Origin: Archaeoglobaceae archaeon
GTDB lineage: Archaea; Halobacteriota; Archaeoglobi; Archaeoglobales; Archaeoglobaceae
DNA: 42,683 nt
NCBI GenBank assembly: GCA_015520485.1
Contig: WAPX01000046.1
Span: forward strand, 1 to 42,683
Reading direction: 5' to 3'
Of the stretch, positions 38,604 through 42,683 are shown one piece after another. Made by a program: the position numbers and the translations under genes. The notes under the pieces were generated by a model. The model was not told the origin of the DNA. It was given only the letters and a program-made list of their open reading frames with translations, and searched no databases. Every line of letters begins with the position of its first letter. The first letter of the stretch is position 1.

Positions 38604-39974
38604 TCAGTCTTTTTCACTTTCGAGCAGGGAATCCAGCAATTTTGGAGTTTCGGGAAACAGAACGTCCTCAGCCGCTTTCAGAGACTCTTCGTATATGTGG
38701 GCGTCGTTGGCAAAGTGGTAGTATTCGTAGCCTGAAAAACCCGTGAGCTCCGACACGTAGGACGTTAGGGTTGCAAAGGCAAACATGTTGGCGTGCATCG
38801 CTCCAAACACGTCGTTGGACCTCATGTAGAATATCCCCGCAAGCCTCCTTCCTGCGCTCTCTCTTCTTTTTCTGCCCGCCAGAAACTGATAGCCTCTGAG
38901 ACAGGGAGGATCGTCGCAGAATAAATCCCACGGTCTTGAAACCGTAACGTAACAGTCTCTCGAAAATCTATTCTTCCTCAGCTTTTCTATGCACGTGTAA
39001 AGCTGGTCAACCTTTACGCTGTCAGCCTCACAGTACCTCGCTCTTTCTGCGTACGTGTAAACCTCCCCCTCCCCTTTTTTTACTGGAGTGCTTACAGGCC
39101 TGTCTATGCACTCAGCGTGGATCACGTAGCTGTGGGCGTAACTTATTCCGTACTCTTTTGAAAACGGAGCCTTATCGTGTATCTGATTTTCCTCCGGATT
39201 TTTAACTTCCACGAACAGTCTCGGCAGAAACCTGCACTTTTCCTGTCCCTCAAAAAGCTTACCCCATTCAGTCTTTTTTTCCATGCCGTGGTAAACGGCT
39301 TCGACAGCAGAATGCCAGGCTGAGGAAATTGAGTTTTCAACGATGTGTGTTCCCTCCTCTGTGCTACCAAACACCTCCTTTAACTTTGAGTGTCCAATTT
39401 CCTTCTCAGCTCTTTCAACATCCCTCTCGTACACGTGAGGGCAGGCAACGAGCATGCCAATGCTTCCAGCGTCGAAACCCGAAAGGCTGCAAACTTTTTC
39501 GAGCATGTAGTTCAGCAGGTCAAAATCGTGGGTGAAGTAATCCGCAACGTTCAGACTTCTGATGTACGCTGTCAGGTTTACCCTGTCGTTGAAGTGGAGA
39601 AAACTGACCTCTGTTATTGCTGGTGGATAGGCTGAGAAGTGGTCTTCGGGATACCACAGCGGGAGGGACATCCTCCTCGTAAAAGGACTCGACTTCAGCT
39701 TTGACGCTATAGCTTCCAGCAAGTTCCCCGCTCTCTCCAGATAGTTCTCGAAATCTTCTTTTTTATCCTTGGAGCTTCTCGTGCACGCACGACCTCTGTC
39801 AATGTACCAGAAGCTTTCAATGTCTGAATCGAAGTACTCCGGATTTTTTACAACCAGAAGTGCTGGAGGAGAGCGAAGCGTCATTCCGTACCTCGAAATC
39901 ATCGGGTTTCCTTCTTCAACAACCTTTGCGAGCAACCTCTGCATCGCTGCATCAGCTTTTGCTTCGACAATCAT
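38604..39974 (-). CDS. Tandem thymidylate-synthase-like protein (pseudo-domain plus active-type domain)
   Basis: The C-terminal half (about residues 215-456) follows archaeal ThyA-type thymidylate synthase: YTYAERARY, FSRD, PPCLRGYQF with catalytic C358, FYMRSND (R385, S386, D388), HANMFAF (N396) and HFANDAHIY (H426, Y428). The N-terminal half repeats the same layout: FTRRM, PPAITEVSF with Ala119 in place of the Cys, YIRSLN (R139, Asp replaced by Asn) and ACPHVY. The 456 residues are thus two copies of one fold, the first without the nucleophile. dTMP synthesis from dUMP is the expected reaction of the second copy. No ribosome site precedes the ATG; AAATTAAATTATC about 25-30 bases upstream suggests a leaderless transcript. 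Confidence 0.75.
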   Translation of the reverse strand: MIVEAKADAAMQRLLAKVVEEGNPMISRYGMTLRSPPALLVVKNPEYFDSDIESFWYIDRGRACTRSSKDKKEDFENYLERAGNLLEAIASKLKSSPFTRRMSLPLWYPEDHFSAYPPAITEVSFLHFNDRVNLTAYIRSLNVADYFTHDFDLLNYMLEKVCSLSGFDAGSIGMLVACPHVYERDVERAEKEIGHSKLKEVFGSTEEGTHIVENSISSAWHSAVEAVYHGMEKKTEWGKLFEGQEKCRFLPRLFVEVKNPEENQIHDKAPFSKEYGISYAHSYVIHAECIDRPVSTPVKKGEGEVYTYAERARYCEADSVKVDQLYTCIEKLRKNRFSRDCYVTVSRPWDLFCDDPPCLRGYQFLAGRKRRESAGRRLAGIFYMRSNDVFGAMHANMFAFATLTSYVSELTGFSGYEYYHFANDAHIYEESLKAAEDVLFPETPKLLDSLLESEKD

Positions 39975-40032
39975 TGAGGTTAAGCTTTATTCACAGATAA
40001 TTTAATTTGACGATTCGGTGTTTTGCCAAGTA

Positions 40033-40956
40033 ATGTCAAAACCTGTAATGTCGAAAGACGAGATTAAGAAGGAAATAGAAAGGCTGAAAGAGGAGAAAAA
40101 CGCTGTAATTCTTGCTCACAACTACCAGACTCTGGACGTTCAGGATGTTGCCGACTTCAAAGGAGACAGCCTTGAACTCGCAGTTGCTGCGTCCAAGCTT
40201 AAAGCGGACATAGTCGTGTTCTGCGGGGTTGACTTTATGGCTGAAACCGCAGCAGTTCTGAATCCGGACAAGAAGGTTCTGATTCCGTGTACTAAAGCCA
40301 AATGCCCGATGGCTGCCCAGTTAACGCCGGAAATGGTAAGGGAGGCGAAGAAAAGCGGTTACCCGTTTATAGCCTACGTGAATACCTTTGCATCCGTTAA
40401 GGCTGAGGCAGACATCTGCTGCACGTCAGCCAATGCGGCAAAAGTTGCCAGAGCTGTGGCCAAGGATGGCGTTTGCTTTCTTGGGCCGGATGCCAACTTA
40501 GCAAAATTTGCCTGTAAAAATGGAATTAAGGTTATACCCGTTCCGGAACACGGATACTGTTACGTCCACAAAGCTTTTCAGGTGGAAGATGTGGAGAGGG
40601 CGAGAAAAGAACATCCAGAAGCCGAGGTAATCGTACATCCAGAGTGCGATTTGGAAGTTCAGAAAAGTGCCGACTTCGTTGGTTCCACAAGCCAGATGCT
40701 GAGGTATGCCCTGAACAGCGAGTGCGAGTCTTTCGTCGTTGGAACAGAAATTGGATTGATAGAGAGGATGAAAAGAGAGATAAAAGATAAACAGTTTTAC
40801 CCGCTGAGAAGGTCGATATGCGTGGAGATGAAGCTGAACAATCTGGAAAACGTTTATTCAGCTTTAAAGGAGGAAAAACACGAGGTGAGGCTGGACGGGG
40901 AAATTGCAGAAAGAGCAAAAAAGGCTGTGAAGAGGATGTTTGAAGTGCTGGATTAA
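40033..40956 (+). CDS. nadA: Quinolinate synthase
   Basis: This [4Fe-4S] enzyme condenses iminoaspartate and dihydroxyacetone phosphate to quinolinate. It has the three-domain NadA pattern: VILAHNYQTLDVQDVADFKG at the start, VFCGVDFMAETAAVLNP, YVNTFASVKAEADICCTSAN (cluster Cys), FLGPDANLA, VIVHPECDLEV (second Cys), VGSTSQMLRY, VGTEIGLIERM and a C-terminal RSICVEMKLNNLENVY (third Cys). The GTG at 40018 and the ATG at 40048 are alternative starts; none has a clear ribosome site. Confidence 0.95.
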   Translation: MSKPVMSKDEIKKEIERLKEEKNAVILAHNYQTLDVQDVADFKGDSLELAVAASKLKADIVVFCGVDFMAETAAVLNPDKKVLIPCTKAKCPMAAQLTPEMVREAKKSGYPFIAYVNTFASVKAEADICCTSANAAKVARAVAKDGVCFLGPDANLAKFACKNGIKVIPVPEHGYCYVHKAFQVEDVERARKEHPEAEVIVHPECDLEVQKSADFVGSTSQMLRYALNSECESFVVGTEIGLIERMKREIKDKQFYPLRRSICVEMKLNNLENVYSALKEEKHEVRLDGEIAERAKKAVKRMFEVLD

Positions 40957-41052
40957 CTGCTGATTTGAATAATTTAACTTTAATTTAATATAATAATAGT
41001 TTAATAAAACAGTTAATAAAACAGTAAAATTTTTAACCGGGTGAAAAAAGAG

Positions 41053-41862
41053 ATGAAAAACGCGAAACTGAAGGTCAGTCTGCTTGGTTGCGGGGCGATT
41101 GGCAGAACCATTGTTGAAAACTCCGGAGATGAATACGAGATACTAGCCGTTTTTGACAGAAACACTGAAAAGGCAGAGGAGCTCGCCGGTATATGTTCAG
41201 CTGAAGTGGCGAAGAGCATGGAGGAATTTCTGGAGTATGCATCTCTCAGCGATGTGGTTGTGGAGGCAGCATCTCAGCAGGCAGTCAGGGAGTGTCCAAA
41301 AATTTTAGAATGTACGAACCTCGTAATCATGTCTGTTGGCGCTCTGAGCGATTCAGAGCTGCTTGAAAAACTGATCAACACAGCCAGAGAAAGCGGTAAA
41401 AAGGTACTCATACCTTCCGGAGCTGTTGGGGGAATTGACGCTTTGAAAGCCGTTAAAGGCCTTGCAGAGGAAGTCGTGCTGAAAACAGTAAAGCATCCGG
41501 AAAGCCTGAAGGGTGCACCTTTCTTTAAGGAGAAGGGAATTTCCGAGAATATTGAGGAGAGAACTGTTCTTTTTGAAGGAAGTGCCATAGAAGCGATTAG
41601 ACTTTTTCCGGCAAACGTAAACGTGGCAGCAACTGTTAGCCTGGCGTGCATGGGTTTCGACAGGACGAGGGTAATCGTTATCGCCGATCCGAACGTAAGA
41701 GAGAACGTCCACGAAATAAGGGCTAAAGGTGAGTTTGGGGAACTGGTTTTCAAAGTCAGGAACAGGAAACATCCGAAAAATCCAAAAACGAGTTATTTAG
41801 CCGCTTTATCCGTCGTGAAACTGCTCAGAGATCTGGCAGGAGAGATGAGGGTGGGAACTTGA
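41053..41862 (+). CDS. nadX: L-aspartate dehydrogenase
   Basis: The enzyme oxidises aspartate to iminoaspartate with NAD(P), replacing NadB in many archaea. Marks are VSLLGCGAIGRTIVEN (Rossmann), VVVEAASQQAVREC, SVGALSD, IPSGAVGGIDALKA, KHPESLKGAPFF, VLFEGSAIEAIRLFPANVNV and NPKTSYLAALSVVKLL. It is close to the characterised Archaeoglobus enzyme. The GTG at 41041 is an alternative start; the ATG at 41053 has GGGTGA eight bases before it. TAAAATTTTTAA near 41023-41035 is a likely own promoter, so nadX-nadC may be separate from nadA. Confidence 0.95.
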   Translation: MKNAKLKVSLLGCGAIGRTIVENSGDEYEILAVFDRNTEKAEELAGICSAEVAKSMEEFLEYASLSDVVVEAASQQAVRECPKILECTNLVIMSVGALSDSELLEKLINTARESGKKVLIPSGAVGGIDALKAVKGLAEEVVLKTVKHPESLKGAPFFKEKGISENIEERTVLFEGSAIEAIRLFPANVNVAATVSLACMGFDRTRVIVIADPNVRENVHEIRAKGEFGELVFKVRNRKHPKNPKTSYLAALSVVKLLRDLAGEMRVGT

Positions 41863-42683
41863 AGGTTTTGAAGCTGTCAAAACCGGTGGTTGAAAAGTTT
41901 TTGAGGTATTACGTTGAGGAGGATGCTTTCTACGGGGATGTGACACCGGTGCCGGAAACTTACGTTAAAGCTGAGATTGTTGCAAAGGAAAGCTTCGTTC
42001 TGTCGGGCGCTGAGGTTGCCTGTCTGTGTTTCGAGATATGCGGAGCAAGGGCTAAATCTCTGAGCAGGGACGGAGCTGAAGTTAGGAAGGGAGACACGGT
42101 AGTAGAAGTAGAGGGCACGTCAGGAGATGTTCTGTTAGCCGAAAGGACAGCTCTGAACATCCTGCAGAGAATGAGCGGTATAGCCACGGCAACGAAAAAG
42201 CTCGTGGAGCTCGTGAAACCTTACGGGGTTAGAGTTGCGGCCACGAGAAAGACGACTCCCGGCTTCAGGCTTTTCGAGAAGCTCGCAGTAATTCACGGTG
42301 GTGGCGACACGCACAGAATGAGTTTATCCGATTGCGTGCTTGTGAAGGATAACCACATTGCGGTGGCTGGTGGCGTCAGGAAAGCTTTGGAGCTTGCAAA
42401 AAACACGTCTTTTACGAAGAAGGTTGAGGTCGAGGTCAGTAACCTGAAAGACGCTTTAGAGGCTGTGAAGTGTGGAGCGGACATAATCATGCTCGACAAC
42501 ATGAGCGTTGAGGACGTCAGAAAAGCTGTGAGGGAGATAAGGAAAATAAGCGAGAACGTCGTAATAGAGGTGTCGGGAGGAATAACACCGGACAACGCAG
42601 AGGAGTACGCCAGAACAGGCGTGGACGTTATTTCTTCCGGATACATAACTCACTCCGCCAGATCTGTGGACGTGAGCATGAGA
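41859..42683 (+). CDS. nadC: Nicotinate-nucleotide pyrophosphorylase (partial at window end)
   Basis: NadC converts quinolinate and PRPP to nicotinate mononucleotide. The first 275 codons are present, nearly the whole protein: YYVEEDAFYGDVTP at the start, ERTALNILQRMSGIAT, VAATRKTTPGFRLFEKLAVI, GGGDTHRMSL, VLVKDNHIAVAGG, VEVEVSNLKDALEA, IIMLDNMS and IEVSGGITPDNAEEYA, all in family order with the PRPP and quinolinate-binding residues. The start is TTG in a TTGA overlap with the nadX stop, after GGGTGGG. The 3' end lies outside the window. It completes the nadA-nadX-nadC set for de novo NAD synthesis. Confidence 0.94.
   Translation, partial: MKVLKLSKPVVEKFLRYYVEEDAFYGDVTPVPETYVKAEIVAKESFVLSGAEVACLCFEICGARAKSLSRDGAEVRKGDTVVEVEGTSGDVLLAERTALNILQRMSGIATATKKLVELVKPYGVRVAATRKTTPGFRLFEKLAVIHGGGDTHRMSLSDCVLVKDNHIAVAGGVRKALELAKNTSFTKKVEVEVSNLKDALEAVKCGADIIMLDNMSVEDVRKAVREIRKISENVVIEVSGGITPDNAEEYARTGVDVISSGYITHSARSVDVSMR

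What the first reader, a model, noticed from the sequence alone, without database searches (positions are those of the whole stretch)
38604..39974. Duplicated thymidylate synthase fold: an inactive-looking copy fused to an active-looking copy
The sequence shows two halves with the same ordered motifs: FTRRM / FSRD, PPAI / PPCL, YIRSLN / YMRSND, PHVY / AHIY. The second half keeps the nucleophile C358, the RSxD motif and HIY; the first has Ala at the nucleophile position and Asn for the motif Asp. Established: ThyA-type synthases are obligate homodimers in which an Arg pair of one subunit contacts the phosphate in the other. Inference: the fusion may make a permanent pseudo-heterodimer in which the first half supplies the cross-subunit phosphate contacts or a regulatory site. 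I know of no description of such an arrangement.
Basis: partly seen in the sequence, partly recalled or inferred. Interest (0 to 1): 0.68.

Follow-up and report, generated by a model that had tools for sequence, protein, structure and literature searches.

The report
Thymidylate synthase fused to dead twin
In Archaeoglobus-type archaea the enzyme that makes the DNA letter T is two copies of the same protein joined end to end: one copy has lost its catalytic cysteine but has kept the pair of arginines that the other copy needs, so this enzyme, usually built from two identical chains with two active sites, seems to have become one chain with one working site.

Summary
The 456-aa minus-strand ORF holds two thymidylate-synthase (ThyA) domains; both pass the Pfam cut-off, and the halves align profile to profile (E 1.7e-8; reversed control fails). 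The N-half alone is modelled as a TS fold. It is not a local oddity. The same two-domain protein is in most Archaeoglobaceae genomes, a sister family, and three more distant mcrA-bearing families. The tree needs only one fusion. In every copy examined the N-half lacks the nucleophilic cysteine but keeps both cross-subunit arginines. The C-half keeps cysteine, RSND, Asn and HxY, while in Archaeoglobales its own second arginine has become Asp. In 31 of 40 good family genomes it is the only thymidylate synthase homologue; the six good genomes without it carry ThyX. Best reading: a permanent pseudo-heterodimer with one working dUMP site, like the engineered E. coli TS heterodimer of PMC5981203. 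The window's genus also has ThyX, so here it is not the only synthase. No biochemistry was found and inter-half geometry could not be inspected. No description was found in the literature searched.

The parts
38604..39974 (-). Two-domain ThyA gene, 456 aa plus stop codon
   Evidence: PF00303 twice
39333..39974 (-). N-terminal half (residues 1-214): TS fold without the catalytic cysteine
38607..39332 (-). C-terminal half (residues 215-456): TS domain with the catalytic residues
39672..39677 (-). R100-R101, counterpart of E. coli R126'/R127' (cross-subunit phosphate arginines)
   Evidence: invariant in 45 of 45 two-domain proteins
39618..39620 (-). A119 at the position of the nucleophile (E. coli C146): inactive half
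   Evidence: A/T/S in all 45, never C
39555..39560 (-). R139-S140 (E. coli R166-S167), kept in the inactive half
   Evidence: invariant
39429..39437 (-). H180-V-Y182 (E. coli H207/Y209), kept in the inactive half
   Evidence: H and Y invariant
39264..39266 (-). W237: replaces E. coli R21 / the Arg of the DERG motif of single-domain archaeal ThyA
   Evidence: W in 45 of 45
38955..38960 (-). R339-D340: C-half counterpart of the arginine pair; second Arg lost
   Evidence: RD in 37 of 39 Archaeoglobaceae plus both sister-family proteins; RR in the four most distant proteins
38901..38903 (-). C358: catalytic nucleophile (E. coli C146)
   Evidence: invariant in 45 of 45
38811..38822 (-). R385-S-N-D388 (E. 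coli R166-S-x-D169)
   Evidence: invariant
38787..38789 (-). N396 (E. coli N177; Asn fits uracil as substrate base)
   Evidence: invariant
38691..38699 (-). H426-I-Y428 (E. coli H207/Y209)
   Evidence: H and Y invariant
40018..40956 (+). Neighbour: nadA (quinolinate synthase), divergent; not part of the system
   Evidence: PF02445; neighbourhood not conserved across the family

Best explanation
The gene encodes a thymidylate synthase of archaeal ThyA type in which an ancestral gene duplicated and fused in frame. The N-half has lost its own catalytic cysteine and acts as the permanent partner subunit: its arginine pair R100-R101 reaches into the C-half's site and holds the dUMP phosphate together with R385. 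The C-half does the chemistry with C358, Y308, D388, N396, H426 and Y428, transferring a methylene/methyl group to dUMP, probably from methylene-tetrahydromethanopterin. The chain is thus a built-in pseudo-heterodimer with one working site. In most Archaeoglobaceae, and in the seven other carriers tested, it is the only thymidylate synthase; in the window's genus ThyX is also present. Shown here: the duplication, the residue pattern, the TS fold of the N-half, the single-origin tree and the genome census. Inferred: the arginine donation, dTMP synthesis, the cofactor and the one-site chain.
For: Two PF00303 domains, halves homologous, N-half folds as TS, whole chain pLDDT 88 and pTM 0.89. N-half R100-R101 invariant while its Cys is A/T/S in 45 of 45; C-half catalytic set invariant; C-half second Arg is Asp in Archaeoglobales. 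N-halves and C-halves each form one group (100/97 and 99/90), fitting one fusion. Census: of 40 good family genomes 34 have it, 31 of these with no ThyX and no other ThyA; all 6 without it have ThyX (Fisher p 2e-5, phylogeny not corrected). All 7 other carrier genomes tested have no ThyX and no other ThyA. PMC5981203: an E. coli TS heterodimer of one wild-type and one R126E/R127E protomer has one functional site, the one in the mutant protomer, because the pair acts on the opposite site. PMC6514825: TS is an obligate homodimer whose dUMP phosphate is held by R21, R166, R126', R127'.
Against: The C-site lacks the R21 arginine (W237 in all copies), so only three of the four phosphate arginines can be assigned. 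V. parahaemolyticus TS also works with three, but lacks a different one (PMC6005164). The N-half keeps R139, S140, H180 and Y182 invariantly, more than pure arginine donation needs. The model's inter-half geometry could not be measured. The protein is below the TIGR03283 cut-off (117.9 versus 174.55 bits). No activity data exist, and methanogen-type ThyA biochemistry is itself little studied (PMC9012536).
Confidence: 0.74

Rival explanations
1. The N-half is kept mainly as a regulatory, non-catalytic nucleotide site (dUMP or dTMP sensing), with or without arginine donation.
For: R139, S140, H180, Y182 and R184 of the N-half are invariant in 45 of 45, and D or E stands at 142 in 43 of 45; R339 of the C-half, which would serve this site, is also invariant.
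Against: The site has lost the second cross-subunit Arg (D340) in Archaeoglobales; the position of N177 varies (N/D/T) and the R21 position is not cleanly kept there; the N-half diverges faster than the C-half (mean identity 0.49 versus 0.69). Invariant residues may be structural.
Confidence: 0.3
2. Chains pair with each other so that C-halves form a conventional two-site dimer and the N-halves are a separate structural appendage.
For: TS is described as an obligate homodimer (PMC6514825); the oligomeric state of the fused protein could not be tested.
Against: A C:C dimer would place Asp340 at the phosphate, where an Arg is expected, while the invariant RR of the N-half would serve a site without a nucleophile. 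High pTM for one chain suggests a fixed intra-chain arrangement.
Confidence: 0.13
3. Not a thymidylate synthase but another TS-superfamily pyrimidine enzyme such as a hydroxymethylase.
For: The first structural matches of the whole chain are MilA (CMP hydroxymethylase) and dCMP-binding enzymes such as AfhB (dCMP hydroxylase).
Against: N396 is Asn in 45 of 45, as in dUMP-using TS (PMC6514825); the ThyX/two-domain distribution is complementary; NCBIfam matches of all 39 members are thymidylate synthases; otherwise 31 good genomes would have no known dTMP synthase.
Confidence: 0.08
4. In the window's genus specifically, ThyX has taken over and the fused ThyA is becoming redundant or has changed role.
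For: All six genomes of the genus have ThyX plus the fused ThyA; Ser or Asn at 278, a position that is Asp/Glu in 35 of 39 and probably matches E. coli Glu58, occurs in only four proteins, all of this genus; N142 is likewise odd here.
Against: The C-half catalytic residues are intact in the genus and the window protein's branches are not unusually long.
Confidence: 0.25

Closest known systems
Single-domain archaeal ThyA (TIGR03283 thy_syn_methano, PF00303)
   Same: Same domain and motifs (RR, PC, RSxD, HIY), similar half length; both halves align to it (C-half E 4e-25, N-half E 1e-20).
   Different: One ~220-aa domain carries every residue and has DERG (R21); here two domains share them, one lacks Cys, and the C-half has TEWG instead of DERG. 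Window protein is below the TIGR03283 cut-off.
Bacterial/eukaryotic thymidylate synthase (E. coli ThyA)
   Same: C146, R126'/R127', R166, D169, N177, H207 and Y209 counterparts present across the fused protein; half-the-sites behaviour is reported for E. coli TS.
   Different: Homodimer of identical 264-aa chains with two potential sites, and a C-terminal segment not present here.
Engineered E. coli TS heterodimer, wild type with R126E/R127E (Falk et al. 2016, described in PMC5981203)
   Same: One functional site per dimer; the protomer with the damaged arginine pair holds the working site and the partner supplies the pair.
   Different: Laboratory construct of two separate chains; there the partner keeps its Cys. 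The natural protein has Cys to Ala plus RR to RD and is covalently fused.
Trypanosomatid deoxyhypusine synthase with dead paralogue (PMC3663545)
   Same: Catalytically dead paralogue needed as partner of the active subunit.
   Different: Unrelated enzyme, separate chains, allosteric activation.
MilA (5jnh) and AfhB (9iqu)
   Same: Among the first structural matches of the models.
   Different: Enzymes acting on CMP/dCMP; the C-half here keeps the uracil-type Asn.

Membership tests
ThyA (PF00303) | Profile match above curated cut-off | tested here: met
   Both halves above 24.3 bits: 68.6 and 32.2
ThyA (PF00303) | Catalytic cysteine | tested here: met
   C358 in the C-half, 45 of 45; absent from the N-half, 45 of 45
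ThyA (PF00303) | RSxD, Asn177, His207-x-Tyr209 counterparts | tested here: met
   R385-S-N-D388, N396, H426-x-Y428 invariant
ThyA (PF00303) | Cross-subunit arginine pair | tested here: met
   R100-R101 in the N-half; C-half has R339-D340
ThyA (PF00303) | Fourth phosphate arginine (R21) | tested here: not met
   W237 in the C-half of all members; in the N-half R28 lies next to the position in Archaeoglobaceae, and R is at the position in four distant proteins
ThyA (PF00303) | Homodimer of identical single-domain chains | tested here: not met
   One chain carries two unequal domains; actual oligomeric state not testable here
ThyA (PF00303) | dUMP to dTMP activity | not testable with these tools
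   Only the genome census speaks to it
TIGR03283 (archaeal thymidylate synthase equivalog) | Score above curated cut-off | tested here: not met
   117.9 bits versus 174.55, although it is the best NCBIfam match for this protein and every one of 39 members matches it
ThyX (PF02511) | Thy1 profile | tested here: not met
   No match for this protein; a separate ThyX gene lies on contig C23
dCMP hydroxymethylase | Asp in place of Asn177 (my own knowledge of the family) | tested here: not met
   N396 is Asn in 45 of 45

The most novel reading that the evidence does not exclude
A natural single-chain, one-site thymidylate synthase, fused once in an ancestor shared with other archaeal lineages and serving as the only dTMP source of most Archaeoglobales, in which an inactive twin is fixed as arginine donor and possibly as a nucleotide-sensing allosteric subunit: evolution's permanent half-of-the-sites enzyme.
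Probability: 0.6. Interest if true: 0.72.

Novelty: new variant of a known kind. Interest (0 to 1): 0.6.

Why it matters
TS is a textbook obligate homodimer with reported half-the-sites reactivity, and why it needs two identical sites is debated. A natural version with one dead half gives a covalently locked heterodimer, which biophysicists say they need for asymmetric TS studies (PMC5981203), and lets one ask whether the second site is ever required. It also bears on which enzyme makes thymidylate in Archaeoglobus and some mcrA-bearing archaea, and on which C1 carrier is used, since 55 of 55 family genomes have no DHFR.

Tried and rejected
Chance motif match: rejected (reversed-profile control; Pfam on both halves). 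Sequencing or assembly error: rejected, since 45 proteins from many genomes share the pattern. Conserved operon: none found in 22 neighbourhoods. Viral or plasmid origin: no record in the phage or plasmid collections covers 80% of the query, a virus-contig scan gave only weak partial matches (a second scan gave none), and no viral structure matched the whole chain (best query TM 0.41). Another ThyA in the same genome: none. DHFR partner: none in 55 genomes. Partner dihydromethanopterin reductase via TIGR02700: only sub-threshold, patchy matches. Direct check of the R100/R101 to C358 distance: impossible, the tools return no coordinates. Literature: ten full-text searches found no description of a two-domain ThyA, but the library lacks most subscription journals.

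Full report
OBSERVATION. The feature is one ORF on the minus strand, 38604-39974, 456 aa. Pfam finds only PF00303 (Thymidylat_synt), in two stretches; searched in the genome, residues ~303-439 score 68.6 bits and the N-half 32.2 bits against a cut-off of 24.3. Profile-profile alignment of the halves of 39 relatives gives E 1.7e-8 over 108 columns, while the reversed C-half profile gives a single aligned column. Each half also aligns end to end with single-domain archaeal ThyA (C-half E 4e-25, N-half E 1e-20). AlphaFold2 of residues 1-214 alone gives pLDDT 85, pTM 0.85. Its first two PDB matches are 9iqc (a flavin-dependent enzyme with dCMP) and AfhB (dCMP hydroxylase); the rest of the 50 listed are thymidylate synthases, DHFR-TS and MilA. 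The whole chain gives pLDDT 88, pTM 0.89 in the best of five models.

ANATOMY. Mapping on E. coli ThyA: R126'/R127' correspond to R100/R101 in the N-half and R339/D340 in the C-half; C146 to A119 and C358; R166-S167 to R139-S140 and R385-S386; D169 to N142 and D388; N177 to D150 and N396; H207/Y209 to H180/Y182 and H426/Y428; Y94 to Y308. In 45 two-domain proteins the N-half never has Cys (A, T or S) yet always has R100, R101, R139, S140, H180 and Y182. The C-half always has C358, R385, S386, N387, D388, N396, H426 and Y428. The second Arg of the C-half pair is lost in Archaeoglobales (D in 39 of 41, T and N in one each) and kept in the four most distant proteins. By parsimony the cysteine was lost first and the now useless arginine later. 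E. coli R21, which is the R of DERG in single-domain archaeal ThyA, is a Trp (TEWG/TQWG) in every C-half; the four distant N-halves keep R there, while Archaeoglobaceae N-halves have F or Y with R or K just before it. The working C-site can therefore be assigned three of the four phosphate arginines: R385, R100' and R101'. A three-arginine TS is known in Vibrio parahaemolyticus, missing R127' and with a raised Km for dUMP (PMC6005164).

DISTRIBUTION. A search with the window protein matches 46 of 55 Archaeoglobaceae genomes, 34 of 40 of good quality. One of the 46, G016 (72% complete), has only single-domain matches, and two genomes (G018, G031) show the protein only as fragments, so the intact two-domain form is in 43 and the architecture in 45. 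One genome of 2,178,400 bp matches my recollection of A. fulgidus DSM 4304. In a 393-genome sample of the phylum it also occurs in a sister family (G217, G226) and in three more distant families (G076/G118, G146/G171, G178); the other phylum matches listed are shorter ORFs that align only to the C-half. All seven of these further genomes carry mcrA, G076 and G118 in four places each. PMC9894754 reports that short-chain alkane-oxidising archaea encode thyA and that ANME-1 replaced thyA with thyX of viral origin; the passages found do not mention a two-domain form.

WHAT ELSE MAKES THYMIDYLATE. ThyX (PF02511) is in 15 of 55 family genomes. Of 40 good genomes, 34 have the fused ThyA and 31 of those have neither ThyX nor any other PF00303 protein; the six without it all have ThyX (Fisher p 2e-5, not corrected for kinship: the absences are in two genera). 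The seven other carriers have no ThyX and no second ThyA, and the two genomes of the same class that lack it have ThyX. The fused protein is thus very probably the thymidylate synthase of these organisms. The window's genus is an exception: all six genomes hold both. There, a position that is Asp/Glu in 35 of 39 proteins, probably E. coli Glu58 (alignment good to about one residue), is Ser or Asn in four (S278 here).

EVOLUTION. In a 64-row tree of halves, single-domain archaeal ThyA and E. coli ThyA, all 24 N-halves form one group (100/97), all 24 C-halves another (99/90), and single-domain proteins a third; within both half-groups the distant families stand apart from Archaeoglobales. This fits one fusion before those lineages split, or one fusion followed by transfer. 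Caveats: the E. coli branch is very long, the program warned of long branches meeting, and the root is not inferred. The N-half diverges faster (mean identity 0.49 versus 0.69). Gene neighbourhoods are not conserved; in the window the gene lies between an aminotransferase and nadA.

MECHANISM. TS is an obligate homodimer because R126'/R127' of one protomer hold the dUMP phosphate in the other (PMC6514825). Lee and Sapienza describe an E. coli heterodimer of wild type and R126E/R127E with one functional site, which is in the mutant protomer (PMC5981203). The archaeal protein has the same logic with the halves' defects placed to match: the half without cysteine has the arginines, and the half with the cysteine has, in Archaeoglobales, a broken arginine pair. 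I therefore infer a chain that is its own dimer with one working site. Shown: duplication, residue pattern, N-half fold, census, tree. Inferred: arginine donation, dTMP formation, one-site stoichiometry, and methylene-H4MPT as donor (no DHFR in 55 of 55 genomes; Archaeoglobus uses H4MPT, my own knowledge).

LIMITS. Model coordinates are not returned, so the distance from R100/R101 to C358 is unmeasured. The N-half's intact R139, S140, H180 and Y182 leave room for a non-catalytic nucleotide site. Other archaeal phyla could not be searched. Thymidine salvage was not surveyed. The literature library is incomplete; within it no two-domain ThyA is described.

VERDICT. A real, ancient, family-wide variant of ThyA, not categorically new, but a natural test case for the half-of-the-sites question.

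Noticed in passing
G000 contig C23 13496-14071 (L003; also in L082): The window's genome also carries a ThyX, so it has two non-homologous thymidylate synthases; the same holds for all six genomes of its genus.
   Followed up: yes
G016 contig C2 (66 kb): L072 4426-5049 (-) and 6062-6790 (+), and G016:C2:3650-4057 (-) in L071: Three divergent single-domain TS-fold ORFs on one 66-kb contig among many small unknown ORFs and an ORF with a Walker-type ATPase motif (L072 3458-4411); it looks like an archaeal virus or mobile element.
   Followed up: partly
Archaeoglobaceae genomes, e.g. G001:C1:1372245-1372652: A protein of mostly 180-210 aa matching TIGR02700 below cut-off (104-127 bits) is in 25 of 55 genomes, almost only in those without ThyX (exception G031, 9% contaminated); a possible dihydromethanopterin reductase partner of ThyA.
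   Followed up: no
window residue S278 (codon 39141-39143, minus strand): Position that is Asp/Glu in 35 of 39 relatives and probably matches E. coli Glu58 is Ser/Asn only in four proteins of the window's genus, where ThyX is also present.
   Followed up: partly
window 40018-42683 (+): nadA, aspartate dehydrogenase and nadC in a row: an NAD biosynthesis cluster next to the gene.
   Followed up: no
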